A stretch of DNA of 64,000 nt from Actinoallomurus spadix. Its GTDB lineage: Bacteria; Actinomycetota; Actinomycetes; Streptosporangiales; Streptosporangiaceae. The stretch is taken from the NCBI RefSeq assembly GCF_024055725.1, contig NZ_JAMXMX010000001.1, positions 1 to 64,000 on the forward strand, read 5' to 3'. Positions 36,430-58,401 of the stretch are shown piece by piece; positions within the stretch are counted from its first letter, which is position 1; the number at the start of each line of letters is the position of its first letter. Position numbers and translations under genes: made by a program. Under the pieces are notes generated by a model, which ran no database searches, was not told where the DNA came from, and was given only the letters and a program-made list of their open reading frames with translations.

Positions 36430-37458
36430 ATGTCCACATCGCCTGCGGTGCGGGATCAGTCCGCCGCGTACTCATTGCTCGATCTGATCCAGGGCGCGGT
36501 GATAACCCAGGCGATCTCCGCCGCGGCCAAGCTCGGCGTGGCGGACGTCCTCCGCGACGGGCCGCTGCCCGCGGAGGAGATAGCCAAGCGCGTCGGATCC
36601 GACCCCGAGGCGACGCACCGGCTGCTGCGTACGCTGTCCGGCTACTCGGTGTTCGCGGTCCGGCCGGACGGCCGGTTCGAGCTCACGCCGATGGCCGAGG
36701 CGCTCCGCGACGACGCGCCGGACTCGATGCGCGGCATCGCCATGCTGATGGGCCACCCCCTCCTCTGGGAGGACTGGGGGCACCTGCTCGACTCCGTGCG
36801 CAGCGGCGAGGCCAACATGCCGAAACTGCGCGGCATGGGCGCGTACGAGTTCCTCATGGCCAACCCCGACTACGCGGCCGTGTTCTTCCAGGGGATGCGG
36901 AGCATGTCGGATCCGGAGACCGATCCGGTGCTGGCGGCGTACGACTTCTCGCGGTTCCGCACGGTCGTGGACGTCATCGGCGGGCGCGGCGCCCTCCTGG
37001 CGGGGATCCTCGCGCGGGCGCCCCGCACCCACGGTGTGCTGTACGACTCCGAGTCCGCGACCGCGGACGCGCCGCAGGTGTTCGACGCGGCCGGCGTCGG
37101 GGACCGGGTCACGGTCAAGAACGGGACGTTCTTCGACAAGCTGCCGGCGGGCGCGGACGCCTACGTGCTCAAGCACATCCTGCACGACTTCCCCGAGTCC
37201 GAGTGCCTCGCGGTCCTGAAGAACGTGCGCGAGGCGATCGCTCCCGACGGCCGGGTCCTCGTCATCGAGTACGTGCTGGGCGGGAACAACGAGCGGCACA
37301 TCGGCAACATCATCGACCTCTGGCTCCTCCTGCTCCTCGGCGCCCGGGAGCGCACGCTGCCGGAGTACACCGAGCTGTTCGCCAAGGCGGGCCTGAAGGT
37401 CGTCGGGGCGGTCCCCACCACCGCGCCGGTCTCGATCATCGAGGCGGTGCCCGCCTGA
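36430..37458 (+). CDS. O-methyltransferase-like protein with altered SAM motif (possible AlpH-type coupling enzyme)
   Basis: The protein has 342 residues. The N-terminal dimerisation/winged-helix domain (TQAISAAAKLGVADVLRDGPLPAEEIAKRVG) and Rossmann domain match plant/COMT-like O-methyltransferases. Motif I reads VVDVIGGRGALL (residues 179-190) where the family has DVGGGxG, so the first Gly of the SAM loop is Ile183. The HD pair is kept (LKHILHDF, His252-Asp253). In kinamycin synthesis an O-methyltransferase-like protein (AlpH) couples glutamylhydrazine to the polyketide without SAM; this is a candidate counterpart by family, motif and location, not proven. It begins the 36.4-43.8 kb operon and shares operator B with the ketoreductase gene. 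Confidence 0.8.
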   Translation: MSTSPAVRDQSAAYSLLDLIQGAVITQAISAAAKLGVADVLRDGPLPAEEIAKRVGSDPEATHRLLRTLSGYSVFAVRPDGRFELTPMAEALRDDAPDSMRGIAMLMGHPLLWEDWGHLLDSVRSGEANMPKLRGMGAYEFLMANPDYAAVFFQGMRSMSDPETDPVLAAYDFSRFRTVVDVIGGRGALLAGILARAPRTHGVLYDSESATADAPQVFDAAGVGDRVTVKNGTFFDKLPAGADAYVLKHILHDFPESECLAVLKNVREAIAPDGRVLVIEYVLGGNNERHIGNIIDLWLLLLLGARERTLPEYTELFAKAGLKVVGAVPTTAPVSIIEAVPA

Positions 37459-37512
37459 GGCCCGCGGAGCGGTACCGGTCCCAGACGCCCCACGGGAAGC
37501 CGAGGAGGGAAA

Positions 37513-39027
37513 ATGGACACTGATGTGATCATCGTCGGCGCCGGGCCGACGGGTCTGATGCTCGCGGGCGAGCTGCGCCTCGGCGGCGCGGACGTCACCG
37601 TATTCGAGCGGCGGACCGAGCGCAGCTGGGAGTCGCGCGGCATCGGCTTCACCGCACGGGCGGCCGAGGTGCTGGACCAGCGCGGGCTGCTCGGGCGGCT
37701 GGAGAACGCCGAGATCACCCGGCAGGGGCACTTCGGCGGCATCCCGATCGACTTCGGGATGCTGGAGGGTTCGCACTTCGGCGTGCGCGGCGTGCCCCAG
37801 TACAAGCTCGAGGAGATGCTCGAGGGCTGGGCGCTGGAGCTCGGCGTGTCGCTGCGCCGCGGGTACGAGCTCACCGGCCTGGAGGACACCGGGGACGGCG
37901 TCACCGCCGTCGTCCAGGGGCCCGACGGCCGTCACGAGCACTCGGCCCCCTACCTCGTGGGCTGCGACGGCGGGCGGAGCACCGTCAGGGACCTCGCGGG
38001 CTTCGACTTCCCCGGCTCCGACGCCACCCGCGAGATGTACCTCGCGGACGTCACCGGCTGCGACATCCGGCCCCGGATGATCGGTGAGCTGGTGCCGAAC
38101 GGCATGGTGATGTCGGCACCGCTCGAGCAGGGCTACCACCGCATCATCGTCTGCGAGAACGGGACGCCGCCGCCCGACCGGAACCGCCAGGTGACCTTCA
38201 CCGACGTCGCGGACGCCTGGCAGCGGCTGACCGGCGAGTCGATCCACGGCGGGCGGGCGCGCTGGGTGAGCAGCTTCACCGACGCGACGCGCCAGGTCAC
38301 GGAGTACCGGCGCGGCCGCGTGCTGCTGGCGGGGGACGCCGCGCACATCCACCTCCCGGCCGGCGGCCAGGGCCTCAGCGTCGGCGTGCAGGACGCGGTC
38401 AACCTCGGCTGGAAGCTGGCCGCGACGGTCAGGGGGCAGGCCCCGGACGGCCTGCTCGACACCTACCACGGTGAGCGGCACCCCGTCGGCGCGCGGGTGC
38501 TGCGGAACACGCGCGCCCAGGGGACGCTCAACCTCAGCGGCAAACCGGTCGAGCCGCTGCGGGCCGTCATGACGGAGCTCGTCGCGATCCCGGCGGTGGC
38601 GCGTCACCTGTCCGGCATGGTGAGCGGCCTCGACGTCCGGTACGACGTCGGGCAGGAAGGGCACCCGCTGCCGGGCGCGCGGATGGCCGACCGCGAACTG
38701 GAGCTCGCCGGCGGCGGCCGTACGCGGATCGCGCGGCTGCTCCACCCGGCGCGGGGCGTCCTGATCACCGCCGACGACTCCGGGGAACCCGCCCGGTGCG
38801 CCGCCGGGTGGTCCGACCGCGTCGACGTGATCCGGGTGCGGAGCATCCCGGCCGGCCCGGGAGAGGACGGCGCCGCGACGGAGTCGGTGCTGGTCCGCCC
38901 CGACGGATACGTCGCCTGGGCGGCGCCGGGCGCGGGCCCGCTCGCCGAGGCGCTGCGGCGCTGGTTCGGCGAGGCGCGGGGGTTCCCGGAACCGCGGGAC
39001 TCCCAGCCGATGGCCTCCGCCCGTTAG
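37513..39027 (+). CDS. Angucycline-type FAD hydroxylase (PgaE/UrdE/JadH-like)
   Basis: This 504-residue class A flavoprotein reads very close to PgaE/UrdE-type C12 hydroxylases throughout: ESRGIGFTARAAEVLDQRGLLGRL, HFGGIPIDFGMLEG, FDFPGSDATREMYLADVTGCDIRPRMIGE and GDAAHIHLPAGGQGLSVGVQDAVNLGWKLA. Such enzymes oxidise the tetracyclic angucyclinone core. It is second gene of the plus-strand operon, just before the aromatase/cyclase. It is the best candidate for the early core oxygenation that precedes ring cleavage. Confidence 0.9.
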   Translation: MDTDVIIVGAGPTGLMLAGELRLGGADVTVFERRTERSWESRGIGFTARAAEVLDQRGLLGRLENAEITRQGHFGGIPIDFGMLEGSHFGVRGVPQYKLEEMLEGWALELGVSLRRGYELTGLEDTGDGVTAVVQGPDGRHEHSAPYLVGCDGGRSTVRDLAGFDFPGSDATREMYLADVTGCDIRPRMIGELVPNGMVMSAPLEQGYHRIIVCENGTPPPDRNRQVTFTDVADAWQRLTGESIHGGRARWVSSFTDATRQVTEYRRGRVLLAGDAAHIHLPAGGQGLSVGVQDAVNLGWKLAATVRGQAPDGLLDTYHGERHPVGARVLRNTRAQGTLNLSGKPVEPLRAVMTELVAIPAVARHLSGMVSGLDVRYDVGQEGHPLPGARMADRELELAGGGRTRIARLLHPARGVLITADDSGEPARCAAGWSDRVDVIRVRSIPAGPGEDGAATESVLVRPDGYVAWAAPGAGPLAEALRRWFGEARGFPEPRDSQPMASAR

Positions 39028-39055
39028 ACGTTCGGTTACGCAGAGGAGAGGAATC

Positions 39056-40015
39056 GTGGCTGCGAGCGCGGTGCGTGAGACGGAGCACGAGATCAACGTC
39101 GGGGCTCCCGCCGACCGGGTGTACGAGCTGATCGAGGACGTCGGCAGGTGGCCGGAGGTCTTCCCCCCGACCGTGCACGCCGAGTGCGTCGAGAGGGAGG
39201 GGAACTCCGAGCTGATCCGGCTCTGGGCGACCGCGAACGGTACCGCCAAGACCTGGACGTCCAGGCGTGAGCACGACCCGGAGCGCAGGCGCGTCTCCTT
39301 CCGCCAGGAGCGGTCCCAGCATCCGGTCGGCGGCATGGGCGGCATCTGGATCGTGGAACCCCTCTCCGCGTCCGAGTGCCGGGTGCGCCTGCTGCACGAC
39401 TACTTCGCGGCGACCGACGATCCCGCCGATCTCGACTGGATCGACCGGGCGGTCGACCGGAACAGCAGGTCGGAGCTGCAGGCGCTCAAGACGAGCGCGG
39501 AACTGACCGGGCCCGACCGGCTCATCACGTTCGAGGACACGGTGACGGTCGACGGCAGCGCCAAGGACGTCTACGACTTCATCAACGAGGCCCAGCACTG
39601 GTCGCGGCGGCTCCCGCACGTCGCCCGGGTGTCGCTGGAGGAGGAGACGCCCGGCCTGCAGATCCTCGAGATGGACACCCTGACGAAGGACGGGTCCGTG
39701 CACACCACGCGGTCCGTGCGCGTCTGCCGGCCGTACACCAGCATCGTGTACAAGCAGATCGTCGTGCCCGCGCTGATGACGCTGCACACCGGGCGCTGGC
39801 TCATCGAGGAGCGCGACGGGGCGGGGGTGTCCGTGACGTCGCGGCACACGGTGCGGATCAACACCGAGCGCATCACCGAGGTCCTCGGCGCCGGAGCCGA
39901 CGTTCAGGCCGCGCGGCAGTTCGTGCGCACGGCCCTCAGCGGCAACAGCATGACCACCCTGCGCGCCGCGAAGGCCTACGCCGAGGGCTCCGGCGGCGAG
40001 CGCGCGGCGTCGTGA
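39056..40015 (+). CDS. Two-domain polyketide aromatase/cyclase (ARO/CYC)
   Basis: This 319-residue protein has two START-like domains. The first (residues ~8-150) begins TEHEINVGAPADRVYELIEDVGRWPEVFPPTVHAE; the second (~160-310) begins FEDTVTVDGSAKDVYDFINEAQHWSRRLPHVARV. The di-domain layout is that of first-ring aromatase/cyclases for C9-reduced chains (ActVII, JadD/PgaL type), agreeing with the ActIII-type ketoreductase nearby. GTG 39056 has GGAGAGG upstream. It overlaps the next gene by 4 bp. Confidence 0.93.
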   Translation: MAASAVRETEHEINVGAPADRVYELIEDVGRWPEVFPPTVHAECVEREGNSELIRLWATANGTAKTWTSRREHDPERRRVSFRQERSQHPVGGMGGIWIVEPLSASECRVRLLHDYFAATDDPADLDWIDRAVDRNSRSELQALKTSAELTGPDRLITFEDTVTVDGSAKDVYDFINEAQHWSRRLPHVARVSLEEETPGLQILEMDTLTKDGSVHTTRSVRVCRPYTSIVYKQIVVPALMTLHTGRWLIEERDGAGVSVTSRHTVRINTERITEVLGAGADVQAARQFVRTALSGNSMTTLRAAKAYAEGSGGERAAS

Positions 40016-41523
40016 CCCGGCCCGCGGCGACCGCGCCCGTCGTCATCGTCGGCGCGGGACCGGTCGGGCTGCTGCTCGCCTGCGAGCTCGGCCGGGCCCG
40101 GGTGCCGGTCGTCATCGTCGAGCGGCTGGCCGCCCCGATGACCGAGTCACGGGCGAGCCAGCTCAGCACCCTGACCGCCGAGCTCCTGCACGAACGCGGA
40201 TTCGGCGAGCTGCTCGCCGAGGCCGCCCACGAGCCGCGGGCGCACTTCGGCGGCCTGGGGTTCGACCTGTCCGGCCTGGACGGTGACCACGCGGGCAACT
40301 GGAAGGTGCCGCAGCACCGGACCGAGGCCGTCCTCGGCCGGCGCGCCGAGGCGCTGGGCGTGACCCTGCTGCGGGCGCACGAGCTGACCGGGCTCACCGA
40401 GCTGCCGGACCATGTCGTCTGCGACGTGCGGGGCCCCGGAGGCGGCGTACGGATCGAGGCGCGGTACGTGGTCGGCTGTGACGGAGCCCGCAGCACCGTA
40501 CGCCGGCTGTGCGGCTTCCCGGTGACGGCCACGGCGGCGACGAAGGAGCTGCTGCGGGCGGACGTGACGGGCGTCGAGATCCGCGACCGGCGATTCGAAC
40601 GGCTCGAGACCGGGTTCGCGGTGGCGGCGACCCGCGACGGCGTCACGAGAGTGATGACGCACGCGTTCGGCCAGGGAGTGGCCGAGCGCACCGGGCCGCC
40701 GGAGTTCGCGGAGGTCGTACGGCTCTGGGAGAAGGTGACCGGCGAGGACATCTCCGGCGGGACCCCCGTCTGGCTGGACGCCTTCGACAACGCACAGGGC
40801 CAGGCGGACTCCTACCGGCGGGGGCGCGTGCTGCTGGCCGGCGACGCCGCCCACTGGCACCTGCCGATCGGCGGCCAGGCGCTCAACGTGGGACTCCAGG
40901 ACGCCGTCAACCTGGGCTGGAAGCTCGCCGGGACGATCAACGGCTGGGCGTCACCGGACCTGCTGGACACCTACCACGCCGAGCGGCATCCCGTCGCGGC
41001 CCGGGTGCTCGACCACGTCGCCGCCCAGGAGTTCCTGCTGCTGGGCGGTCCCGAGATCGAGCCGCTGCGCGCGGTGCTCGCCGAGCTGACCGGCCTGGGC
41101 CAGGTCCGCGACCACCTGGCCAGGGTCGCCGCCAACCTCGACGACCGGTACGGCCCGCCCGGATCCGCACTGGCCGGGCGGCGCGTCACGGACCTCCGGC
41201 TGCGGACGGAGTCGGGTCCGCTGCGGGCGACGGGCACCGAGCCCGTCCTCGTACGGCTCACGGACACCCCTGACGACCCGGTACGGCTCAGCGACACCCC
41301 TGACGACCGCGTACGGCTCAGGGACACCCCTGACGGCCCCGGCCGGTTCGCCGTCCCGACGATCCGCGCGACCGCGCACGAGGGTCGTCTCCCGGGGATC
41401 ACCGCCCTCCTCCTGCGGCCCGACGGCTACGTCGCCTGGGCCGGCGACGGCGAGGAGGACCTGGACCGAGCGCTCGCGAAGCTGCTGCGCGTGGAAGGAG
41501 GCAAGGACGATGCGAGACTTTGA
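40012..41523 (+). CDS. FAD-dependent aromatic hydroxylase with tandem peptide repeat
   Basis: This 503-residue class A flavin monooxygenase has VVIVGAGPVGLLLACELGRARVP, VVGCDGARSTVRRLCGFP and LLAGDAAHWHLPIGGQALNVGLQDAVNLGWKLA. It is more diverged from PgaE than its neighbours, so it may do a different oxygenation or ring-cleavage preparation. Near residues 414-443 the sequence repeats VRLxDTPDD three times, encoded by an exact 30-bp tandem array; this is a recent in-frame expansion in a surface loop of the C-terminal domain. GTG 40012 overlaps the cyclase stop (GTGA). Confidence 0.87.
   Translation: MTRPAATAPVVIVGAGPVGLLLACELGRARVPVVIVERLAAPMTESRASQLSTLTAELLHERGFGELLAEAAHEPRAHFGGLGFDLSGLDGDHAGNWKVPQHRTEAVLGRRAEALGVTLLRAHELTGLTELPDHVVCDVRGPGGGVRIEARYVVGCDGARSTVRRLCGFPVTATAATKELLRADVTGVEIRDRRFERLETGFAVAATRDGVTRVMTHAFGQGVAERTGPPEFAEVVRLWEKVTGEDISGGTPVWLDAFDNAQGQADSYRRGRVLLAGDAAHWHLPIGGQALNVGLQDAVNLGWKLAGTINGWASPDLLDTYHAERHPVAARVLDHVAAQEFLLLGGPEIEPLRAVLAELTGLGQVRDHLARVAANLDDRYGPPGSALAGRRVTDLRLRTESGPLRATGTEPVLVRLTDTPDDPVRLSDTPDDRVRLRDTPDGPGRFAVPTIRATAHEGRLPGITALLLRPDGYVAWAGDGEEDLDRALAKLLRVEGGKDDARL
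41251..41340 (+). repeat. Three-copy 30-bp in-frame tandem repeat
   Basis: The units 41251-41280, 41281-41310 and 41311-41340 each read GTACGGCTCA-nn-GACACCCCTGACG plus a short variable end. The period is a multiple of three, so each copy adds ten residues (VRLxDTPDDx) to the monooxygenase. Confidence 0.9.
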
Positions 41524-43066
41524 CGCGGACGTCGTCATCGTGGGGGCCGGCCCCACCGGGCTCATGCTCGCGGGTGAGCTGGGCCTGGCCGGGGTCCGGG
41601 CCGTGGTCCTCGAGCGGCTGGCCGAGCCGATGAGGCAGTCGCGCGCCCTGGGGTTCTCCGCACGCGCCATCGAGGAGTTCGACCAGCGCGGACTGCTGCC
41701 GCGGTTCGGTGACCTGCAGACCATCCCGTTCGGCCACTTCGGCGGACTGCCCATCGACTACCGGGTCATCGAGGGCGGATCGTACGGCGCGCGGGGTAAG
41801 CCGCAGTCCCTCACCGAGGGGGTGCTGGCCGGGTGGGCCGCCGAGCAGGGCGCCGAAGTGCGCCGGGAGTGCGAGGTCACCGGGCTCACCTGCGACGACG
41901 ACGGCGTCGAGGTGGACGTCGTCACGCCGGCGGGCGGCGAACGCCTGCGCGCCCGGTACGTCGCGGGCTGCGACGGCGCGCGCAGCGCCGTCCGCCGATC
42001 GATCGGCGTCGGCTTCCCCGGCACCGACCCGGCCATCGAGCTGTGGTTCGCCGACGTGGCCGGCTGCGACCTGCGGCCGCGCTTCTCCGGCGAGCGCGTT
42101 CCGGGCGGGATGGTCATGGTGCTGCCGCTGGGCCCGGGGATCAACCGCGTGATCCTGCACGAGCGGGCCGGGACGCGGCGCGGCGACGGCGCCCCCGACT
42201 TCGCGGAGATCGCCGCAGCCTGGAACCGGCTGACCGGCGAGGACATCGGCGGCGCCACGCCGCTGTGGACGAGCTGGACCACCGACGCGAGCCGGCAGGC
42301 GGCGGAGTACCGCCGCGGGCGGGTCTTCCTGCTCGGCGACGCCGCGCACATCCACCTGCCGATCGGCGCCCAGGGGATGAGCGCGGGCGTGGGCGACGCC
42401 GTGAACCTCGGGTGGAAACTCGGCGCCGCGATCAACGGGCACGCCCCCGCGGACCTGCTGGACACCTACCACACCGAGCGGCACCCCGTCGGCGCACGCA
42501 TCCTGGCCAACACCCTCGCCCAGCGCATCCTGTACCTCGGCGGCGACGAGATGGACCCGATGCGGGCGGTCATGACCGAACTGCTGGCCTACGAGGACGT
42601 CCAGCGGCTGCTGGTCGGCATGGTCACCGGCCTGGACATCCGGTACGACGTCGGGCCGGGCGACCACCCGCTGCTCGGCCGGCGGCTGCCGGACACCGAG
42701 CTCACGGGCGACTTCGCGCCGTCCGGCACGGTACGCGCCCTCCGGCTCCTGAACGCCGGGCGCGGCGTCGTCCTCGACCTGGCCGGTGACGACGAGGTGC
42801 GCGCCGCCGCCGCGCCGTGGGCGGACCGGATCGAGGTCGTCACCACGGAGTCCCGACCGCACGGCGCGCTGGCGGACGTCGAGGCCGCGCTGGTGCGCCC
42901 GGACGGCTACATCGCGTGGATCGGCTCGGGCGCGACCAGCCCGGGCGCGACCGGCTCCGGCGGAACCGGCGCGGCGGGCCTGCCGGAGGCCCTGACCCGA
43001 TGGTTCGGCCGGCCCCACGAAGGTCACCACGGCGTGACGCCCGCCGCGGCGGGCGCCCGGCCGTAG
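41510..43066 (+). CDS. FAD-dependent aromatic hydroxylase (PgaE/GilOI-like)
   Basis: This 518-residue protein has ADVVIVGAGPTGLMLAGELGLAGV, SRALGFSARAIEEFDQRGLLPRF, HFGGLPIDYRVIEGG, GCDGARSAVRRSIGVGFPG and GDAAHIHLPIGAQGMSAGVGDAVNLGWKL. It is strongly similar in layout to PgaE/GilOI-type angucycline hydroxylase-dehydratases. A Gly/Ala/Thr/Ser-rich stretch (about 486-498) and a Pro/Ala tail end the protein. It overlaps the preceding hydroxylase by 14 bp and precedes the ring-opening oxygenase, the usual partner order for oxidative B-ring cleavage. Confidence 0.88.
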   Translation: MRDFDADVVIVGAGPTGLMLAGELGLAGVRAVVLERLAEPMRQSRALGFSARAIEEFDQRGLLPRFGDLQTIPFGHFGGLPIDYRVIEGGSYGARGKPQSLTEGVLAGWAAEQGAEVRRECEVTGLTCDDDGVEVDVVTPAGGERLRARYVAGCDGARSAVRRSIGVGFPGTDPAIELWFADVAGCDLRPRFSGERVPGGMVMVLPLGPGINRVILHERAGTRRGDGAPDFAEIAAAWNRLTGEDIGGATPLWTSWTTDASRQAAEYRRGRVFLLGDAAHIHLPIGAQGMSAGVGDAVNLGWKLGAAINGHAPADLLDTYHTERHPVGARILANTLAQRILYLGGDEMDPMRAVMTELLAYEDVQRLLVGMVTGLDIRYDVGPGDHPLLGRRLPDTELTGDFAPSGTVRALRLLNAGRGVVLDLAGDDEVRAAAAPWADRIEVVTTESRPHGALADVEAALVRPDGYIAWIGSGATSPGATGSGGTGAAGLPEALTRWFGRPHEGHHGVTPAAAGARP

Positions 43067-43095: not shown

Positions 43096-43845
43096 ATGCC
43101 ATTCATCGACCCCGAGGACGGGTACCTGACGGTCCTCAACCTGTTCAAGACGGACGCGCCGGAACGCGTGGACCGGCTGGTCAACGAGATGCGGGCCATC
43201 GTCGACACCGCGGCCTTCCCCGGCTGGATCTCCAGCACCGTGCACCGGGGGGAGGAGAGGGCGGGAACCGCGAACTTCATCCAGTGGCGCGGCCGGCAGG
43301 ACCTGGAGTCGCGGTACGACGGCGCCGAGTTCAAGCACCACACGGTGCCGGTGTTCCAGCAGATCACGACGTACATGCGGTTGATGCAGACGGAGGTGGA
43401 GTCCAGCCGGCCGCACCCCGCGCAGGGCGACGTCACCGAGATCTCACCGGACCGCGACGACTACACGGTCATCGAGATCCTCGGAGTGCAGCCCGCCGAC
43501 CAGAGTGACCTGGTCAGCGTGCTCGGAGCGGCCCACGACTGGCTGGTGGACGTGCCGGGCTACCGGTCACAGACCGTGCTGCGCGGCATCCGGTCCCGCG
43601 GCCCCGACGGCACCGGCCCCGGCGGCGGCCTGGCGGCCATCGGCACGGACAACGACTTCGTGGTCGTCTACTCGCAGTGGGACGGCAAGTCGTCCTACGA
43701 CGCGTTCCGCGCGCTCGCCGAGGACGAGCAGCCCGCCGCGCGGCGCAGGACGCAGGACCGGCGGAACGCGCTGATCACCGCCGCCGACTGGAACACCTAC
43801 CGCGTCGTCCACACCCGGTCGGCGCCGCAGCCCGCCGCGACCTGA
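43096..43845 (+). CDS. Angucycline B-ring-opening oxygenase (JadG/GilOII/AlpJ family)
   Basis: The protein has 249 residues. Two tandem ABM-like (ferredoxin-like fold) halves carry GYLTVLNLFKTDAPERVDRLVNEMRAIVDTAAFPGWISSTVHRGEE, NFIQWRGRQDLESRYDGAEFKHHTVPVFQQITTYMRLMQTEVE and, in the second half, DDYTVIEILGVQP, VVVYSQWDGKSSYDAFRAL. This matches the reduced-flavin-dependent enzymes that cleave the angucycline C5-C6 bond; in kinamycin/fluostatin pathways the product recloses as a benzo[b]fluorene. It is the key marker that the core is rearranged rather than a plain angucycline. AGGAGAGC precedes ATG 43096. A terminator follows. Confidence 0.9.
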   Translation: MPFIDPEDGYLTVLNLFKTDAPERVDRLVNEMRAIVDTAAFPGWISSTVHRGEERAGTANFIQWRGRQDLESRYDGAEFKHHTVPVFQQITTYMRLMQTEVESSRPHPAQGDVTEISPDRDDYTVIEILGVQPADQSDLVSVLGAAHDWLVDVPGYRSQTVLRGIRSRGPDGTGPGGGLAAIGTDNDFVVVYSQWDGKSSYDAFRALAEDEQPAARRRTQDRRNALITAADWNTYRVVHTRSAPQPAAT

Positions 43846-45988: not shown

Positions 45989-46323
45989 CGCGGCTCTCCT
46001 TCGGCGGTCAGCTCGATGTGGTCCCACATTTGGGCCTCGGTGGGGGTCCAGTCCTCATCCACGTAGATGCAGTCGACGGGACAGACCATCACGCACACCG
46101 GGCAGCCGGAGCACAGTTCGGGGATGATGACGACGTCGAGTCCGCGATCGAATATCGCCCCGAATTCAGGGGGGCAGTTACGCAGGCACGTGTCGCACGT
46201 GATGCATTCCGACGCCTCGATGCGACGGGGCGGCTTCTTCCAGTTGCCGTCACGGGCTCGCTGCGCGATTCGCTGGGCGCGCCCGGTGCTCGCTGCGGGG
46301 GTGATCTCCTTCGCCCACGGCAT
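45985..46323 (-). CDS. Two-[4Fe-4S] ferredoxin
   Basis: This 112-residue protein carries two classical cluster motifs: Cys40, 43, 46 and 50 (CITCDTCLRNCP) and Cys71, 74, 77 and 81 (CSGCPVCVMVCP). A ~35-residue basic N-terminal extension (RAQRIAQRARDGNWKKPPRR) precedes them. It transfers electrons, probably to an oxidase or reductase of this operon: the DUF3050 protein upstream or the 663-residue protein downstream, with which it is translationally coupled. ATG 46323 follows GAGGTGAG. Confidence 0.93.
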   Translation of the reverse strand: MPWAKEITPAASTGRAQRIAQRARDGNWKKPPRRIEASECITCDTCLRNCPPEFGAIFDRGLDVVIIPELCSGCPVCVMVCPVDCIYVDEDWTPTEAQMWDHIELTAEGEPR

Positions 46324-50407: not shown

Positions 50408-51694
50408 ATGATTTCCCGTTATTCGCTGCCCGAAATGGCGGAGCTGTGGTCTGATCAGGCTCGCTATGCCACCTGGACCAGGGTGGAGGTCCTGGCGTCT
50501 CAGGCGCAGGCGCTGCTCGGCCGGGTCCCCGAGGCCGCTCTGGCCGACATCCGGCGTGCCCGGGTGCCGGCCGCGGCGCGGGTGGCAGAGCTCGAGCGGG
50601 AGCGCGACCACGAGATCCTCTCCTTCCTCGCCGCCTTCTGCGAGGACATCCCCGACGACTCCGCTCGGTGGGTGCACCTCGGCATGACGAGCTATGACCT
50701 CGTGGACACCGCCCTCGGGCACACCCTCGCCCGCGCCTGCGACCTCCTGCTCCAGGCGGCGGCACGGCTGCGCGGCGTGCTGGCGGACAGGGCGGTGGAG
50801 CACTGGGACACGGTCTGCATCGGGCGCACCCACGGGATGCACGCGGAGCCGACGACGTTCGGCCACAAGCTCGCGGGGTTCGCCTTCGCCATCGACCGTT
50901 CCGTACGCCGGCTGGAGGCCGCGCGTAAGGAGGTCGCGGTGGGCACGATCTCCGGCTCCGTCGGAACGTACGCGCTGATCGACCCCTTCGTGGAGAAGTA
51001 CGTGTGCGCGGAGCTCGGCCTCGGGGTCGAGCCCGCGCCGAGCCAGGTCGTGGCTCGCGACCGGCACGCCCAGCTCCTGCAGACGGTGGCGACGCTCGGT
51101 GCCTGCGTCGAGCAGATCGCCATCGAGGTCCGGCTGCTGTCGCGCAGCGAGGTCCGCGAGGTGGAGGAGCCCCGGACGGCCGCCTACCAGGGGTCGAGCG
51201 CCATGCCGCACAAGCGCAACCCGACGACCGGCGAGCGCCTGACCGGGCTGGCCCGGCTGCTGCGCGGGTACGCGGGCACCATGCTGGAGGACGTGGCGCT
51301 CTGGCATGAGCGGGACCTGTCCCACTCGTCCGTCGAGCGGGTCGCCATGCCGGACGCGCTGATCGTCGCGCACTACCAGGCGACCGCCGCCGCGGACCTG
51401 GTGGCGGGCCTGGAGGTGTTCCCGGACCGGATGCGCGCCGCGATCGACCGGACCAACGGCCTGGCGTACAGCTCCGCGGTGCTGGCCGACCTCCTGGAGG
51501 GCGGCACCGAGCGCGAACGTGCCTACCGGGCGATCCAGGCCGCCGCGAACGGCGCGATCTCCGGCGGCGATGACCTCGGTACTCTTCTCGGTGCCGAGGG
51601 GATCGACATCGGTCCGCTGCGGCCGGAGCGTTTCCTCGTGCACCATGACGTCATCTTCGAGCGATTGGAAGCCCTGCGTGACCTGGGACATTAA
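50408..51694 (+). CDS. Adenylosuccinate-lyase homologue of the hydrazine cassette
   Basis: This 428-residue fumarase/aspartase-superfamily lyase has LGMTSYDLVDTALG, GRTHGMHAEPTTFGHKLAGF (His142) and the signature GSSAMPHKRNP (262-272) with the flexible catalytic-Ser loop. It looks like purB, but the location beside glutamine-synthetase-, amidase- and GNAT-family genes matches the lyase homologue shared by fosfazinomycin and kinamycin clusters, thought to act on a hydrazino-succinate-type intermediate and release fumarate. ATG 50408 follows GGAGG. It overlaps the acetyltransferase gene by 17 bp. Confidence 0.9.
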   Translation: MISRYSLPEMAELWSDQARYATWTRVEVLASQAQALLGRVPEAALADIRRARVPAAARVAELERERDHEILSFLAAFCEDIPDDSARWVHLGMTSYDLVDTALGHTLARACDLLLQAAARLRGVLADRAVEHWDTVCIGRTHGMHAEPTTFGHKLAGFAFAIDRSVRRLEAARKEVAVGTISGSVGTYALIDPFVEKYVCAELGLGVEPAPSQVVARDRHAQLLQTVATLGACVEQIAIEVRLLSRSEVREVEEPRTAAYQGSSAMPHKRNPTTGERLTGLARLLRGYAGTMLEDVALWHERDLSHSSVERVAMPDALIVAHYQATAAADLVAGLEVFPDRMRAAIDRTNGLAYSSAVLADLLEGGTERERAYRAIQAAANGAISGGDDLGTLLGAEGIDIGPLRPERFLVHHDVIFERLEALRDLGH

Positions 51695-52079
51695 GCGCGA
51701 GAACGGCGCCGAGCTGGACCTGGACGACGTCTTGGAGGTCTACCGGTCCTCGGGACTCGGTGAACGCCGGCCGATCGCGGACATCGAACGCATGGCGGCG
51801 ATGGTGCGCAACGCCAACCTCGTCGTGACCTGCCGGATCGACGGCGCGCTCGTGGGCATCGCGCGCAGCGTCTCGGACTTCTCCTACGTGACGTACCTCT
51901 CCGACATCGCGGTCGCCCGCGCGCACCAGCGGGCCGGGATCGGGAGGGCGCTCATCGACGCGACCCGCAAAGAGGCGCCGCAGGCCAAGATCGTGCTGCT
52001 GTCGGCGCCCGCGGCGACGGAATACTATCCGCACATCGGCTTCAGCCGGCACGACTCCGCCTGGGTGCTGAACCCGTAG
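51678..52079 (+). CDS. GNAT N-acetyltransferase, candidate hydrazine acetyltransferase
   Basis: This small GNAT protein of 133 residues has the acetyl-CoA loop ARAHQRAGIGRALI (Q-x-x-G-x-G type), the beta-strand before it (YLSDIAV), and a C-terminal EYYPHIGFSRHDSAWVL. Kinamycin and fosfazinomycin pathways proceed through acetylhydrazine, made by a GNAT homologue. GTG 51678 lies inside the end of the lyase gene, giving translational coupling; the longer upstream frame is only a shadow of that gene. It ends the plus-strand part of the cassette. Confidence 0.88.
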   Translation: MTWDIKRENGAELDLDDVLEVYRSSGLGERRPIADIERMAAMVRNANLVVTCRIDGALVGIARSVSDFSYVTYLSDIAVARAHQRAGIGRALIDATRKEAPQAKIVLLSAPAATEYYPHIGFSRHDSAWVLNP

Positions 52080-52241: not shown

Positions 52242-52277
52242 GTCCTCTTCGGGCTCGGCTCCCGGACCCGGTCGTAC

Positions 52278-53075
52278 TCAGCCCTGGAGCACCAGGGCGG
52301 GATCCCCCGACAGGATGGCCGCCTGCAGGCGCTGCAGTCTCGGACAGGGCTCGACCCCGAGTTCGCGGTTCAGCACGGACCGGAGCCGGTGGAAGGCCTG
52401 CAGCGAGCGCCCGACGTGCCCCGCGCGGTACAGAGCGGTCATCAAGAACGCGCAGAGGTTCTCGTTCATCGGGTTCCTGGCCGCCACGAGCGTCAGCTCG
52501 CCCAGCAGGTCGGCGTGCCGTCCCAGGGCCAGGTCGGCTTCGATACGCCGCTCGAGCGCGCCGAGCCGGCTCTCCTCCAGCGAGGCCGCCTCGATCTCCA
52601 GGACACGCCCCATCCGCACGTCCACCAGCGCCGGGCCGCGCCACAGCTGGAGCGCGCGATTGAACTCCTCTGACGCGAGCCGGTGATCACCCGCCTCGGC
52701 GGCCCCGCGGCCGGCACGGACGTGGCGGTCGAACACCTCGACGTCCGTCCGGCAGGCGTCCTCCTCGAGCAGATAACCGTTGTGGTGGGTGCTCAGCATC
52801 TGCCGCGCGTCCGGGTCGCCGGAGTTCGCGGCGGCGAGTGCGTTCCGCAGCTGCAGAATGTAGGTCTGCAACGTCGTGGCGTAGCTGCGCGGTGGGGAGT
52901 CCGCCCAGAGTTCCTCGATGAGCGTCGGTACCGTGACGACCCGGCCCACATTCAGCGCGAGCACCGCCAGGACCTGACGTTGCTTGGGCGCGCTCGTCCT
53001 CACCGGCGTCTGGTTGAGGCGCAGGGACAGGGGGCCGAGCAGCCCGATGCTCAGCGGCCTGGGATCCCGGTTCAT
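52278..53075 (-). CDS. SARP-family transcriptional activator
   Basis: This 265-residue protein has an OmpR-like winged helix (LSIGLLGPLSLRLNQTPVRTSAPKQRQVLAVLALNVGRVVTVPTLIEELWADSPPRSYATTLQTYILQLRNAL) followed by the bacterial transcriptional activation domain (DVEVFDRHVRAGRGA, LWRGPALVDV, ALYRAGHVGRSLQAFHRLRSVLNRELGVEP). This is the ActII-ORF4/RedD layout without extra domains. It probably activates the minimal PKS operon. ATG 53075. Its own upstream region is long (573 bp) and comparatively AT-rich. Confidence 0.93.
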   Translation of the reverse strand: MNRDPRPLSIGLLGPLSLRLNQTPVRTSAPKQRQVLAVLALNVGRVVTVPTLIEELWADSPPRSYATTLQTYILQLRNALAAANSGDPDARQMLSTHHNGYLLEEDACRTDVEVFDRHVRAGRGAAEAGDHRLASEEFNRALQLWRGPALVDVRMGRVLEIEAASLEESRLGALERRIEADLALGRHADLLGELTLVAARNPMNENLCAFLMTALYRAGHVGRSLQAFHRLRSVLNRELGVEPCPRLQRLQAAILSGDPALVLQG

Positions 53076-53648: not shown

Positions 53649-54425
53649 ATGCGCAAGGTCGTTTCGCGGGACGGCACGACGATCGCTTATGAGAAGGCGG
53701 GTGACGGCCCGCCGATCGTGCTTCTCAACGGCGCTTTCCGCGATCACACGATCTTCGATTTCCTCGTTCCCGAGCTGGCGCCGCACTGCACCACCTACGT
53801 CTACGACCGCCGGGGGCGCGGGGAGAGCGGGGATTCCCCCGCCTACGCCGTCGAGCGGGAGATAGAGGACCTCGAAGCGGTGATCGACGAGGCCGGCGGC
53901 CAGGCGGTGGTGTTCGCCGGGTCCATCGGTGCGAACCTGGCGCTCGAAGCGGCGATGGCCGGCGCGCCGATCACCAAGCTGGCACTGCACGAGCCGTACT
54001 ACCGGGTCGAGGGCTATCAGAAGCCCCCGGCCGACTTCATGGACCACCTTCGGGACCTGCTGGCGGACGGGCGGCGCGGTGCGGCCGCCGAGTACTTCCT
54101 CGCCGAACTGCTGGGCCTTCCGCCCGAGATGATCGCCGACTGGCGCCAGGGCCCGCTGTGGGCGACGAACGAGGCGAACGCCCACACCCTCCCGTACGAC
54201 ACCCGGATCTGCGGCGACTTCCAGGTCCCGGTCGAGCGGCTGGCCTCCCTCCGGACGCCGACGCTGGTCGTCAACAGCGACGGCACCGGCGATTGGCTGC
54301 GCGCCGCGGCGCGGGCGACCGCGACCGCGCTGCCGAACGGCTGGGGAATGGAACTGCCCGGGTCATGGCACCGGATCGAGACGGAGATCCTCGCCCGCGT
54401 CCTGGTCGGATTCGCCACCACCTGA
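53649..54425 (+). CDS. Alpha/beta-hydrolase
   Basis: This 258-residue hydrolase begins VVSRDGTTIAYEKAGDGPPIVLLNGAF. The nucleophile elbow reads FAGSIGANLAL (A-x-S-x-G), the acid region is VVNSDGTGDW and the catalytic His is in GSWHRIETEILARV. GAGGAGAG precedes ATG 53649. Relatives are generic esterases; in this cluster it may hydrolyse an ester, epoxide or thioester in polyketide tailoring or resistance. It stands alone between the SARP promoter region and the AraC gene. Confidence 0.83.
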   Translation: MRKVVSRDGTTIAYEKAGDGPPIVLLNGAFRDHTIFDFLVPELAPHCTTYVYDRRGRGESGDSPAYAVEREIEDLEAVIDEAGGQAVVFAGSIGANLALEAAMAGAPITKLALHEPYYRVEGYQKPPADFMDHLRDLLADGRRGAAAEYFLAELLGLPPEMIADWRQGPLWATNEANAHTLPYDTRICGDFQVPVERLASLRTPTLVVNSDGTGDWLRAAARATATALPNGWGMELPGSWHRIETEILARVLVGFATT

Positions 54426-54527
54426 GCCGAAGCCGGGCCTGCGCGATGGAGCCGGGCCTGCGCGATGACGTCACGAACGAGGCGTCCCGCGTGAGCGGCA
54501 CCGGTGAAACGGCGCGCTCCGCGCCGG

Positions 54528-55007
<480 letters not shown>

Positions 55008-55297: not shown

Positions 55298-55624
55298 ATG
55301 CACAGTAATCTGATCGTGGCCAGGATGGACCCTCGTTCGAGTGCCGAGGTGGCCGCGCTCTTCAGCGCTTTCGACGAGACCGACATGCCCCATCGCATGG
55401 GGACGCGGCGACGTCAGCTCTTTTCGTTCCGCGGCCTGTACTTCCACCTCCAGGACTTCGACGCCGACAACGGCGGAGAGCTCATCGAAGAGGCGAAGAC
55501 CGACCCGCGCTTCATCCGGATCAGCGAGGACCTCAAGCCGTTCATCGAGGCCTACGACCCGGCGACCTGGCGATCGCCGGCGGACGCCATGGCGAAGAGG
55601 TTCTACAGCTGGGAGTCCGCGTGA
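55298..55624 (+). CDS. Polyketide cyclase, TcmI family
   Basis: This 108-residue single-domain protein has [53 protein letters not shown], matching TcmI-type second/third-ring cyclases that precede KS genes in aromatic clusters. GAGGTGG lies before ATG 55298; an in-frame ATG at 55274 is less well placed. Its stop overlaps the KS-alpha GTG by 4 bp, so it leads the PKS operon. Confidence 0.92.
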
Positions 55625-56892
55625 CCGGCAGACGAGTGGTCATCACCGGGGTCGGGGTGCTCGCGCCGGGAGGCATCGGGGTCAAGAACTTCTGGAGCCT
55701 GCTCAGCGAGGGCCGGACGTCGACGAGAGAGATCACCTTCTTCGACCCGTCCGCGTTCCGCTCCAGGGTCGCGGCGGAGGCGGACTTCGATCCCTGGGAA
55801 CACGGCCTCGGGCCGCAGGAGATACGCCGCATGGACCGGGCGGCGCAGTTCGCCGTCGTCGCGGCGCGGGAGGCGATGGCCGACAGCGGCGTGGAGCTGA
55901 GCGAGATCGAGCCTCATCGCGCGGGGGTGACCGTCGGCAGCGCCGTGGGCGCCACCATGGGCCTGGACCGGGAGTACCGCGTGGTCAGCGACGGAGGCCG
56001 GCTCGACCTCGTCGACCATCGGTACGCCGTTCCCCACCTCTACGACTACTTCGTGCCGAGCTCCTTCGCGGCCGAGGTCGCCTGGGCGGCCGGTACCGAG
56101 GGCCCGGCCACCGTGATCTCCACCGGCTGCACCTCGGGGCTGGACTCGGTCGGCTACGCGGCCGAACTCATCCGTGACGGCTCGGCCGACGTGGTCATCG
56201 CCGGCGCCACGGACGCGCCGATCTCGCCGATCACCGTGGCGTGCTTCGACGCGATCAAGGCGACCACGCCGCGCAACGACGATCCCGCGCACGCCTCCCG
56301 GCCGTTCGACCGTACGCGCAACGGCTTCGTGCTCGGCGAGGGCGCCGCGATGTTCGTCCTGGAGGAGCTCGGCGCCGCGCGCCGCCGCGGCGCCCACCTG
56401 TACGCCGAGATCGCCGGGTACGCCTCGCGGTGCAACGCCTTCCACATGACCGGGTTGCGCCCTGACGGCAGGGAGATGGCCGAGGCGATCCGTGCGGCGC
56501 TGGACGAGGCGAGGACGGACCCGGAGGACGTCGACTACATCAACGCGCACGGCTCCGGCACCAAGCAGAACGACCGGCACGAGACCGCCGCCTTCAAGCG
56601 CAGCCTCGGCGAACACGCCCGCCGTACACCGGTGAGCTCGATCAAGTCGATGGTCGGCCATTCGCTCGGTGCGATCGGCTCGATCGAGATCGCGGCCTCG
56701 GTCCTGGCGATGGAGAACAACGTGGTGCCCCCGACGGCGAATCTGCACGAGCCCGACCCCGAGTGCGACCTCGACTACGTGCCGCTGACCGCCCGCGACT
56801 GGCGGACCGACACGGTCCTGACGGTGGGCAGCGGTTTCGGCGGTTTCCAGAGCGCGATGGTCCTGGCCCGTCCCGAGAGGAACCCGGCATGA
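55621..56892 (+). CDS. Type II PKS ketosynthase alpha (KS-alpha)
   Basis: This 423-residue condensing enzyme carries active-site Cys170 ([16 protein letters not shown]), His310 ([15 protein letters not shown]), Lys342 and His347 ([18 protein letters not shown]). It catalyses each malonyl condensation in complex with KS-beta and the ACP. GTG 55621 overlaps the cyclase stop, and the stop overlaps the KS-beta ATG. Confidence 0.97.
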
Positions 56893-58145
56893 CCTCCCGG
56901 GCCGTCGTCACCGGAATCGGCGTGGTCTCTCCCAACGGATTCGGCGCGGAGGACTACTGGGCCGCCACCTGCGGCGGTAAGAGCGGCATCGACCGCGTCA
57001 CCCGCTTCGATCCCTCGCGATACCCGGCGAGACTCGCCGGCGAGGTGTCCGGGTTCAGCGCACAGGACCACCTTCCGAGCAGGCTCATACCGCAGACGGA
57101 CCGGATGACCCAGCTCGCCCTCGTCGGCGCGGATCACGCGCTCGCCGACGCCGGGGTGAGCACCGGGGACCTGCCCGAGTTCGGCATGGGCGTCGTGACC
57201 GCCAGTTCCTGCGGCGGCTTCGAGTTCGGCCAGGGAGAGCTGCGGAACCTCTGGAGCAAGGGCGGCCAGTACGTCAGCGCGTACCAGTCCTTCGCCTGGT
57301 TCTACGCGGTCAACACCGGCCAGATCTCGATCCGGCACGGCATGCGCGGCCCCAGCGGCGTGCTGGTCAGCGACCAGGCGGGCGGGCTGGACGCGATCGC
57401 GCAGGCGCGCCGCCTGATCCGCAAGGGCAGCGACCTGATCCTGTCCGGCGGCGTCGACGCGTCGATCTGCCCGTGGGGGTGGGTGGCGCAGCTCGCCGGC
57501 GGGAGGCTGAGCACCAGCGAGCAGCCGGACCGCGCCTACCTCCCCTTCGACACCGACGCGGCCGGGCACGTGCCGGGCGAGGGCGGGGCGCTTCTGATCA
57601 TCGAGGGCGCCGAGGCCGCGCGGCGGCGCGGCGTGACCCGCGTGTACGGCGAGATCGGCGGATACGGGGCCACGTTCGATCCGCGACCGGGCAGCGGGCG
57701 GGAGCCGGCGCTGCGGAAGGCGATCGAGATCGCGCTCGACGACGCGGAGCTGTCACCGGAGGAGATCGACGTGGTCTTCGCCGACGCGGCCGCCATCCCG
57801 GAGCTCGACCGCGTCGAGGCCATGGCGATCACCGAGGTCTTCGGGTGCCGCGGCGTCCCGGTCACCGCGCCGAAGACCATGACGGGCAGACTCGGCTCGG
57901 GCGCCGCTCCGCTCGACGTCGCCACCGCGCTCCTGGCCATGCGGTCGGGACTGATCCCGCCGACGACGAACGTCACCCTCGCTCCCGAGTACGACATCGA
58001 CCTGGTGACCACGCTGCCGCGGCGTACACCCGTGCACGCGGCCGTCGTCCTCGCCCGCGGGCAGGGCGGTTTCAACTCCGCCGTCGTCCTGCGCTCCATC
58101 GACTGGAACGGACCGAAGGAAGGGAACGAGCATGGCATCCGGTGA
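56889..58145 (+). CDS. Type II PKS chain-length factor (KS-beta)
   Basis: This 418-residue KS homologue has the active-site Cys replaced by Gln163 ([16 protein letters not shown]), the mark of chain-length factors. It sets chain length and makes acetyl starter by decarboxylation. ATG 56889 overlaps the KS-alpha stop; the frame is open further upstream but only shadows KS-alpha. Decaketide length is expected from the angucycline context but cannot be read from the sequence by eye. It overlaps the ACP gene by 14 bp. Confidence 0.97.
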
Positions 58146-58401
58146 GTTCACCATCGAGGACCTCCGGCGCATCCTCCACGAGGCCGCCGGCGAGAGTGAC
58201 GGCGCCGACGTCGACGTCGGCACCATGGACACCGAGTTCATCGACCTCGGCTATGAGTCCCTGGCACTGCTCGAGACCGGCGGCCGGATCGAGCGGGAGT
58301 TCGGCATCACGCTGGACGACTCGACACTGTTCGAGTCGCCCACCCCGCGTGCCCTGATCGAGGCCGTCAACGCACGGCTCACCGTACGGGAACCCTCGTA
58401 G
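58132..58401 (+). CDS. Type II PKS acyl carrier protein
   Basis: This 89-residue ACP has Ser43 in DLGYESLALLE as the phosphopantetheine site. ATG 58132 lies within the end of KS-beta. It holds the growing chain for KS, ketoreductase and cyclases. No phosphopantetheinyl transferase is visible in the window. Confidence 0.96.
   Translation: MASGEFTIEDLRRILHEAAGESDGADVDVGTMDTEFIDLGYESLALLETGGRIEREFGITLDDSTLFESPTPRALIEAVNARLTVREPS

What the first reader, a model, noticed from the sequence alone, without database searches (positions are those of the whole stretch)
36430..58401. Hydrazine cassette plus ring-opening oxygenase plus type II PKS: a glycosylated diazobenzofluorene-like pathway
Three marker sets share one locus: a complete minimal PKS with ActIII-type ketoreductase and two-domain cyclase; a JadG/GilOII/AlpJ-type B-ring-opening oxygenase; and glutamine-synthetase-, amidase-, adenylosuccinate-lyase- and GNAT-family genes in two divergent operons. 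From published work, the kinamycin and fosfazinomycin clusters share this nitrogen gene set, and acetylhydrazine is carried on glutamate. Together with two glycosyltransferases and amino- and O-methyl-sugar genes, a lomaiviticin-like glycosylated diazo compound is the best inference. The gene order and the extra redox genes suggest a distinct family member.
Basis: partly seen in the sequence, partly recalled or inferred. Interest (0 to 1): 0.9.

Follow-up and report, generated by a model that had tools for sequence, protein, structure and literature searches.

The report
Glycosylated diazobenzofluorene antibiotic gene cluster
An actinobacterium, probably an Actinoallomurus, carries a lomaiviticin-like gene cluster that should build a sugar-bearing antibiotic by way of a nitrogen-nitrogen (diazo) group; it belongs to a known family, but has a different polyketide starter system and an iron-enzyme-like protein of unassigned role in its hydrazine operon.

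Summary
The 'O-methyltransferase' at 36430 is AlpH-like, the enzyme that loads glutamylhydrazine onto the polyketide. AlpJ and AlpK/FlsO1 homologues, GS, amidase, lyase and GNAT are present. GS and amidase branch with cassette enzymes, not the genome's own paralogues; the lyase does so with weak support. Window genes at 25.4-52.1 kb are collinear with the Salinispora pacifica lom locus (66-85% identity), so 'gene order suggests a distinct member' is not supported. What differs is the minimal PKS: another lineage (KS-alpha 68% to lom, about 90% to Kibdelosporangium and Actinomadura), without lom's LnmK-type starter gene. A DesI-type aminotransferase, two glycosyltransferases and deoxysugar genes (11-23 kb) support an aminosugar glycoside. 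I predict an acetate-primed, glycosylated diazobenzofluorene. The puzzle left is a HamA-type (DUF3050) protein inside the hydrazine operon, with no role assigned in the papers searched. New variant of a known kind; the product is not shown.

The parts
43997..45988 (-). KinJ/FzmP/Lom29-type heme hydrazine synthase (663 aa)
   Evidence: 9 of 9 checked KinJ residues (PMC12154649: K356, C468, R497, M498, N501, H504, H541, R551, R570) at offset +27; next best offset 3 of 9; 11 of 297 same-family genomes have a match, 7 of them (window included) over 70% identical
45985..46323 (-). KinI/Lom30-type 2[4Fe-4S] ferredoxin; stop overlaps the KinJ start (ATGA)
   Evidence: Fer4 dicluster hits; sequence read directly; missed by my gene caller
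46405..47199 (-). DUF3050 / HamA-type heme-oxygenase-like (diiron-type fold) protein; at the place that Lom31 should hold in lom (inference)
   Evidence: PF11251 316 bits; Foldseek top hit 9vwb HamA E 3e-14, then TenA-like 3oql, UndA, CADD
47242..48738 (-). KinL/FzmN-type glutamine-synthetase-like ligase
   Evidence: branches with cassette GS
48735..50054 (-). KinK/FzmO-type amidase
   Evidence: branches with cassette amidases
50483..51694 (+). KinM/FzmR-type adenylosuccinate-lyase-like lyase
   Evidence: nearest to cassette lyases, separating branch weak; start codon may lie a little upstream
51678..52079 (+). KinN/FzmQ-type GNAT acetyltransferase
   Evidence: 69-91% to GNATs in loci with over 50% KinJ identity, where found
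36430..37458 (+). AlpH-type OMT-like glutamylhydrazine-loading enzyme
   Evidence: PDB 8h3t AlpH 377 bits, next 227; 10 of 14 AlpH positions checked identical, K266, H267, H270, D271 and M174 included
37513..39027 (+). angucycline FAD oxygenase (CabE/PgaE-like)
   Evidence: 2qa2 608 bits
39056..40015 (+). two-domain aromatase/cyclase
40012..41523 (+). FAD oxygenase
   Evidence: 69% to lom
41510..43066 (+). AlpK/FlsO1-type hydroxylase
   Evidence: 7vwp FlsO1 664 bits, 6j0z 648 bits; that 6j0z is AlpK is recalled
43096..43845 (+). AlpJ/JadG/GilOII-type B-ring-opening oxygenase
   Evidence: which of these proteins the two PDB entries are is recalled, not shown
35434..36219 (-). ketoreductase
   Evidence: FabG-type; 85% to lom #33
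55298..55624 (+). polyketide cyclase
   Evidence: PF04673
55636..56892 (+). KS-alpha
56889..58145 (+). chain-length factor
58132..58401 (+). acyl carrier protein
58463..60214 (+). ABC exporter
   Evidence: 74% to lom
60338..61930 (-). acyl-CoA carboxylase carboxyltransferase
53649..54425 (+). alpha/beta hydrolase; Lom6/FlsH/Nes5-type is only a guess from its occurrence in the lom region
   Evidence: 74% over a partial lom ORF; closest PDB chain 3r0v is unassigned
52278..53075 (-). SARP regulator
54528..55007 (-). AraC-family regulator
25435..27222 (+). FAD monooxygenase
   Evidence: 67% to lom
27425..28894 (-). amine-oxidase-like flavoprotein
   Evidence: 66% to lom
30082..33106 (-). two tandem FAD monooxygenases (one in lom)
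33657..35352 (+). SDR and NmrA-like reductases
   Evidence: 77% and 74% to lom
21217..22044 (-). Peptidase_C26 amidotransferase, Alp1W/KinW candidate (no Alp1W sequence was compared)
   Evidence: 66% to lom #26
11453..14479 (+). deoxysugar genes: 3,5-epimerase, NDP-hexose 2,3-dehydratase, GFO/IDH ketoreductase
14504..15556 (-). glycosyltransferase 1
15583..16797 (-). DesI-type 4-aminotransferase
   Evidence: TIGR04427 677 bits over cut-off 650; 2po3 '4-dehydrase' 520 bits (recalled as CalS13)
16897..18893 (-). two methyltransferase-like genes (sugar O-/N-methylation candidates)
   Evidence: (first) and weak hits below cut-off (second); 67% and 66% to lom
18972..20123 (-). glycosyltransferase 2
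20170..21039 (-). RmlA glucose-1-phosphate thymidylyltransferase
   Evidence: TIGR01207 over cut-off
22087..23076 (-). dTDP-glucose 4,6-dehydratase
   Evidence: TIGR01181 over cut-off

Best explanation
A lomaiviticin-type (glycosylated) diazobenzofluorene biosynthetic cluster, about 10.4 to just past 64 kb, with a non-lom minimal PKS. Proposed route, each step inferred here by homology to enzymes characterised elsewhere: (1) KinJ with its ferredoxin joins nitrite to L-Asp, giving L-hydrazinosuccinate. (2) GNAT acetylates it; the lyase releases acetylhydrazine. (3) GS loads acetylhydrazine on glutamate; the amidase deacetylates it to glutamylhydrazine. (4) The type II PKS, KR and cyclases with FAD oxygenases make dehydrorabelomycin. 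(5) AlpJ/AlpK homologues open the B ring and the AlpH homologue condenses glutamylhydrazine by a SAM-independent Mannich reaction; loss of glutamate and oxidation give the diazofluorene. (6) A-ring redox steps and transfer of an O-methylated deoxysugar and a 4-aminodeoxysugar follow. Because lom's LnmK-type starter enzyme is absent and the KS/CLF belong to another lineage, the starter should be acetate (methyl, as recalled for kinamycin), not propionate (ethyl, as recalled for lomaiviticin). Dimerisation, and whether the diazo group stays in the final product, are open.
For: Presence and subfamily of each enzyme. KinJ residues 9 of 9. AlpH residues and score gap. Cassette versus housekeeping. 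Collinearity with lom and the Amd-GS-DUF3050-Fd-KinJ operon shared with 13 other loci of 43 mapped. PKS lineage: KS-alpha 68% to lom against 88-95% to five others. LnmK family in 7 of 24 genomes searched, absent from the own genome. DesI-type 4-aminotransferase over its cut-off.
Against: No product data. No CreD/CreE nitrite pair in the own genome: the CreD-family hit (446 bits, cut-off 650) is a PcaB in a protocatechuate operon, and there is no CreE-like match at E <= 1e-30, so nitrite must come from elsewhere; the genome has narG. AlpH F157, V314, C201 and L252 are Y, I, I and F here, the last as in the SAM-binding relative MmcR (PMC10477347). PMC12154649 also gives R496 and R550 in one passage; those two numbers do not match at +27, the R497 and R551 of its other passage do. 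An acetate starter rests on absence of a gene. No dimerisation gene is known, so monomer or dimer cannot be told.
Confidence: 0.82

Rival explanations
1. The cluster makes lomaiviticin itself or a trivial congener (propionate-primed dimer).
For: g25-g44 collinear with S. pacifica lom at 66-85% and the same sugar gene types.
Against: KS-alpha 68%, CLF 61%, ACP 39% to lom; LnmK-type gene absent from the own genome while found in 7 of 24 searched, all four Salinispora included; lom AT gene absent from the 80 kb examined.
Confidence: 0.1
2. A fluostatin/nenestatin-like outcome: the diazo is only a transient intermediate and the accumulated product is a benzofluorene without an N-N bond.
For: In fluostatins and nenestatins the cassette is present but main products lack diazo (PMC6470958, PMC11705231, passages). 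The Micromonospora rosaria (fls) fragment L053 shares the Amd-GS-Fd-KinJ order with the window.
Against: Nothing in the sequence excludes it; only the closer likeness of the whole block to lom speaks for a lasting diazo.
Confidence: 0.3
3. The GS, amidase, lyase and GNAT genes are housekeeping paralogues beside an ordinary angucycline cluster.
For: Family names alone.
Against: Tree and identity tests for GS and amidase, weaker for lyase; adjacent KinJ and ferredoxin.
Confidence: 0.01

Closest known systems
Lomaiviticin (lom) cluster, read here from Salinispora pacifica CNR114 (identified by content; the published lom sequence itself was not available)
   Same: Collinear block g25-g44; hydrazine cassette with DUF3050; AlpH/AlpJ/AlpK; sugar genes with a DesI-like aminotransferase 68% identical
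   Different: Minimal PKS of another lineage; no LnmK-type AT/decarboxylase, no second ACP, no extra AT in 80 kb; one more FAD monooxygenase (g28) and a HTH-regulator-like gene (g27)
Kinamycin (alp/kin) type, represented here by class II Streptomyces loci (L061, L062, L071, L084); S. ambofaciens alp and S. murayamaensis kin themselves were not available
   Same: All hydrazine, AlpH, AlpJ and AlpK functions
   Different: Different cassette order (Fd-KinJ-Amd-GS-Lyase-GNAT); CreDE in 3 of these 4 genomes; no DUF3050; AlpH 52-55%, AlpJ 53-56%, AlpK 63-66% identical
Fluostatin (fls)/nenestatin (nes)
   Same: Hydrazine cassette, with Amd-GS-Fd-KinJ order in the M. rosaria fragment L053; FlsO1 is the closest solved relative of g37; nenestatin B carries an aminosugar (PMC11857394 passages)
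   Different: Nenestatins carry ethyl groups (PMC13028485 passages); no DUF3050 in the fls fragment or genome; nes sequence not in the collections searched
Fosfazinomycin (fzm)
   Same: Hydrazine cassette logic (PMC6133997 passages)
   Different: Phosphonate product; no sequence compared here
Fragin/valdiazen (ham) cluster
   Same: HamA is the closest solved relative of the DUF3050 protein (195 bits; Foldseek)
   Different: Diazeniumdiolate NRPS pathway (PMC11659414 passages)

Membership tests
Diazobenzofluorene (kin/lom/fls/nes) clusters | KinJ-type heme hydrazine synthase with conserved active-site residues | tested here: met
   9 of 9 residues at offset +27
Diazobenzofluorene (kin/lom/fls/nes) clusters | Adjacent partner ferredoxin | tested here: met
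   45985-46323 minus
Diazobenzofluorene (kin/lom/fls/nes) clusters | GS, amidase, lyase, GNAT of the cassette subfamilies | tested here: met
   Trees for GS and amidase strong, lyase weak; GNAT by identity only
Diazobenzofluorene (kin/lom/fls/nes) clusters | AlpH-type coupling enzyme | tested here: met
   4 of 14 checked positions differ (F157Y, V314I, C201I, L252F), none of the five residues that PMC10477347 mutated in the pocket (M174, K266, H267, H270, D271)
Diazobenzofluorene (kin/lom/fls/nes) clusters | AlpJ and AlpK/FlsO1 homologues with type II PKS | tested here: met
Diazobenzofluorene (kin/lom/fls/nes) clusters | Product contains, or passes through, a diazo group | not testable with these tools
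   needs chemistry
Lomaiviticin cluster proper | LnmK-type propionyl starter gene and lom-lineage KS/CLF | tested here: not met
Lomaiviticin cluster proper | Collinear tailoring and hydrazine block | tested here: met
Lomaiviticin cluster proper | 4-aminosugar and O-methylated deoxysugar genes, two glycosyltransferases | tested here: met
   sugar identity itself inferred
Lomaiviticin cluster proper | Dimeric product | not testable with these tools
   coupling enzyme unknown (PMC4506494 passages)
Kinamycin-type clusters with CreDE | CreD/CreE nitrite-forming pair | tested here: not met
HamA-type heme-oxygenase-like diiron oxygenases | Fold and conserved ligand-type residues | tested here: inconclusive
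   Fold met. E94, H105, H166, H207, D211, H215 are among the invariant residues of 20 sequences, resembling but not equal to the SznF ligand pattern. E94 lies in a low-confidence stretch of the model; geometry and metal binding not tested

The most novel reading that the evidence does not exclude
The DUF3050/HamA-type diiron-oxygenase-like protein is an unrecognised, exchangeable part of the diazo hydrazine cassette that supplies the oxidised nitrogen (nitrite or an equivalent) to KinJ, taking the place of CreDE. It would help explain why most lom-type clusters mapped here lack CreDE, and why the gene sits between GS and the KinI-KinJ pair. A sister reading is that it oxidises the released hydrazone or hydrazide to the diazo group, as the ferritin-like diiron enzyme Dob3 does elsewhere.
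Probability: 0.25. Interest if true: 0.75.

Novelty: new variant of a known kind. Interest (0 to 1): 0.52.

Why it matters
Lomaiviticins and kinamycins are potent DNA-damaging antitumour leads, and few clusters are linked to products: 20 of 469 predicted diazo clusters in PMC13061610 (passages). This cluster offers a testable prediction of a glycosylated, acetate-primed diazobenzofluorene. It also gives evidence that PKS/starter modules are exchanged between otherwise close hydrazine cassettes. And it points to an iron-oxygenase-like gene passed over in a well-studied hydrazine cassette; its function is directly testable because the neighbouring KinJ reaction has been reconstituted.

Tried and rejected
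CreD in the own genome: the best hit (C10:89320, 446 bits, below the 650-bit cut-off) proved to be PcaB inside a protocatechuate operon, so it was rejected. In one search all 14 control genomes also rang, so a bare hit there means little.

DUF3050 as a strict replacement for CreDE: counts over 44 rows (window + 43 loci) give both 1, DUF3050 only 16, CreDE only 18, neither 9. Fisher over all rows p = 1e-4. In one search I had put L053 in the wrong architecture class; corrected, class I (23 rows) gives 0.39, class II (21 rows) 0.04, and the stratified one-sided value is 0.017. The rows are related, so these are not true probabilities; the tree-based independent-pair test has only 3 pairs on well-supported branches and cannot reach significance. 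Scoring choices: CreDE was called present in 19 genomes, namely the 18 over the CreD cut-off (one of them, L045, with CreD and CreE on different contigs) plus L063 (612 bits with CreE beside it). Salinispora L040 and L092 have CreD-like (584-586 bits) and CreE-like (56-57%) genes about 5 kb apart on another contig than KinJ and were called absent; calling them present makes 'both' 3 and the stratified value 0.18. In the one row with both (L059) the CreDE pair lies on another contig than KinJ. For most CreDE genomes I did not check that the pair lies on KinJ's contig. So the link is kept only as a hypothesis.

DUF3050 copies away from KinJ sit beside PhyH, transketolase, E1-dehydrogenase, hydrolase or peptidase genes (10 neighbouring ORFs of six loci scanned, one of which, L152, carries a lyase-family gene and looks like the KinJ-linked copy), so the family is not confined to N-N chemistry. 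Rows dropped before the counts: 37 of the 80 loci (18 distant ones, L094-L111, and 19 others left out to limit the genome searches); none of these 37 shows a DUF3050 match in its flank. Eighty is also the cap of that tool, so the scan may be incomplete.

LnmK: the first search of the own genome rang nowhere, controls included; it was repeated with genomes that hold it.

Structure comparison with VIA-align was not available. KinJ itself has no match in the PDB at E <= 1 and was not folded.

Literature: no held paper pairs lomaiviticin with 'heme oxygenase' and 'lom31' finds only an unrelated paper. 'DUF', 'heme oxygenase' and 'diiron' do not occur in the main text of the KinJ paper. Actinoallomurus with diazofluorene terms and Actinomadura with kinamycin and lomaiviticin gave listings without such a producer in title or abstract start; the one Actinoallomurus source looked into names allocyclinones. 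Figures, supplements and subscription papers were not seen, so Lom31 may be discussed there.

Full report
WHERE IT IS. The window is the first 64 kb of a 467,626-bp contig of an 8.02-Mb genome, 98% complete. The genome handle called 'same genus' (G166) holds its KinJ homologue on a contig of the same length and at the same coordinates as the named Actinoallomurus soli locus L032, so the host is probably an Actinoallomurus.

WHAT IS THERE. Three further genes decide the case. First, 43997-45988 (minus, 663 aa) has no Pfam or NCBIfam match; KinJ was likewise described as having no identifiable domains (PMC12154649, parts 1-3 of 7 read, and passages). Nine residues named there for KinJ (K356, C468, R497, M498, N501, H504, the proposed heme ligand H541, R551, R570) all fall on identical residues at a single offset of +27; the next best offset gives 3 of 9. 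Another passage of that preprint writes R496 and R550, which do not match at +27. All nine lie on invariant columns of an 8-sequence alignment reaching down to 28% identity. Second, a two-cluster ferredoxin (45985-46323, minus) overlaps its start by four bases, as expected for KinI/Lom30. Third, the O-methyltransferase-like protein at 36430-37458 matches solved AlpH (8h3t) with 377 bits against 227 for the next. AlpH catalyses SAM-independent coupling of glutamylhydrazine (PMC10477347, parts 1-4 of 8 read). Of 14 AlpH positions checked, 10 are identical, including K266, H267, H270, D271 and M174, all mutated in that paper; F157, V314, C201 and L252 differ. The AlpJ-type oxygenase, the AlpK/FlsO1-type hydroxylase (664 bits to FlsO1) and a PgaE/CabE-type oxygenase complete the ring chemistry.

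The window's GS is 27-31% identical to the genome's three other GS proteins, its amidase 32-37% to six other amidases, and its lyase 45% to its nearest own paralogue, presumably PurB. In trees with 18-20 cassette homologues each, chosen from the 80 loci, GS and amidase fall with the cassette rows (SH-aLRT 99). The lyase is nearest to cassette lyases, but the separating branch has support 41 only. The own paralogues have long branches in all three trees (for the paralogues). GNAT was compared by identity only.

COMPARISON WITH RELATIVES. Order maps of 43 of them plus the window (classes assigned by me from those maps) show two cassette architectures. Class I (23 rows) reads Amd-GS-(DUF3050)-Fd-KinJ; lyase and GNAT are divergent from it where found, and in most rows it converges on AlpJ...AlpH. 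It includes the four Salinispora lom-type loci and, at a contig edge, the fluostatin producer's species M. rosaria (L053). In three Streptomyces rows of class I (L043, L047, L086) lyase and GNAT were not found within 10 kb, and in L041 the polyketide genes are placed differently. Class II (21 rows) mostly reads Fd-KinJ-Amd-GS-Lyase-GNAT in one direction. The window is class I. Against S. pacifica CNR114, window genes g25-g44 are collinear at 66-85% identity, with g27 and g28 lacking a counterpart of their own.

WHAT IS DIFFERENT. The minimal PKS is not lom's: KS-alpha 68%, CLF 61%, ACP 39%. Its KS-alpha is 88-95% identical to those of A. soli, Kibdelosporangium, Actinomadura sp. WMMA1423, Thermomonospora and Phytoactinopolyspora and groups with them (11-row tree). 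The lom, Rhodococcus rhodnii and Kineosporia loci carry an acyltransferase and an LnmK-type acyltransferase/decarboxylase (PDB 4hzo, 259 bits). The LnmK family occurs in 7 of 24 genomes searched and not in the window's genome (an earlier search without a positive control). That LnmK-type enzymes make propionyl starters for lomaiviticin is recalled; that nenestatins bear ethyl groups is from passages of PMC13028485. Hence the prediction of an acetate-primed, kinamycin-like methyl group on a glycosylated scaffold, a combination that I recall from none of the four characterised families. Kibdelosporangium (L083) and R. rhodnii (L085) are sisters in the KinJ tree (support 100) but have different PKS lineages, so the PKS/starter module seems to be exchanged.

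SUGARS. RmlA, RmlB, a 3,5-epimerase, a 2,3-dehydratase, a GFO/IDH reductase, two glycosyltransferases of the activator-dependent type (below that family's cut-off) and two methyltransferase-like genes, the second recognised only weakly, lie at 11.4-23.1 kb. The aminotransferase passes the DesI cut-off (677 bits, cut-off 650) and matches 2po3 (520 bits; recalled as CalS13). This points to a 4-amino-4,6-dideoxy-type sugar such as the pyrrolosamine of lomaiviticins; the sugar is inferred.

THE UNASSIGNED IRON-ENZYME-LIKE PROTEIN. 46405-47199 is a DUF3050 protein. Its AlphaFold model (mean pLDDT 84, 20 sequences) matches HamA 9vwb (E 3e-14), then a TenA-like protein, UndA and CADD. E94, H105, H166, H207, D211 and H215 are among the invariant residues of 20 sequences; E94 lies in a stretch of low model confidence and no geometry was measured. 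It adjoins the hydrazine cassette in 17 of 44 rows: in 14 class I rows between GS and ferredoxin, in two class II rows divergent beside the ferredoxin, in one at the cassette's end (the window). That placement argues for work in the nitrogen operon. The published Lom names of the cassette skip Lom31 (PMC6470958, passages), and the order puts this gene there; that is inference. It rarely occurs with CreDE (1 of 17 rows, against 18 of 27 without it). But relatedness confounds this: the tree-based test cannot decide, and the stratified value moves from 0.017 to 0.18 with the scoring of two Salinispora genomes. Nine rows have neither, and the own genome has narG as another nitrite source. I therefore offer nitrite supply, or late diazo oxidation, as hypotheses at about 0.25 together.

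VERDICT. The enzymatic logic of a diazobenzofluorene pathway is as well supported as sequence allows. The product, its starter, its sugars, its dimer state and whether the diazo group survives in it are predictions or open. It is a new variant of a known kind, not a new kind.

Noticed in passing
window 46405-47199 and 16 relatives: DUF3050/HamA-type protein tied to the hydrazine cassette in three arrangements; role unassigned in the papers searched.
   Followed up: partly
L083 (Kibdelosporangium aridum) and L085 (Rhodococcus rhodnii): Sister KinJ cassettes with different minimal PKS lineages and starter genes, suggesting exchange of the PKS module.
   Followed up: partly
L086 against L043 and L047 (class I Streptomyces): L086 lacks DUF3050 but its genome has CreDE, while its two sisters have DUF3050 and no CreDE pair: a possible natural swap. 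In all three, lyase and GNAT were not found within 10 kb.
   Followed up: no
window 63576-64000 and beyond: Sulfotransferase-like gene (g56) with a counterpart in 7 of 8 related regions compared, lom included (64%); role unknown.
   Followed up: no
S. pacifica CNR114, G309:C2:165324-172278: Leucine-biosynthesis-like genes with an aminotransferase and a methyltransferase sit inside the lom region and have no match in the other seven regions or the window's 80 kb.
   Followed up: no
L071, S. jeddahensis, G328:C117: A class II cassette with CreDE about 64 kb from KinJ on the same contig, deoxysugar genes 48-82% like the window's and a second, lom-like block with its own AlpH-like gene (68%): perhaps a hybrid or glycosylated kinamycin-type cluster.
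   Followed up: no
L093, Dactylosporangium aurantiacum: KinJ cassette without a ferredoxin match, with DUF3050 at the end of the operon.
   Followed up: no
window 23334-24721: PNPOx-like and sigma-factor genes between sugar and oxygenase genes; no counterpart (g22) or weak ones (g23) in the eight regions compared.
   Followed up: no
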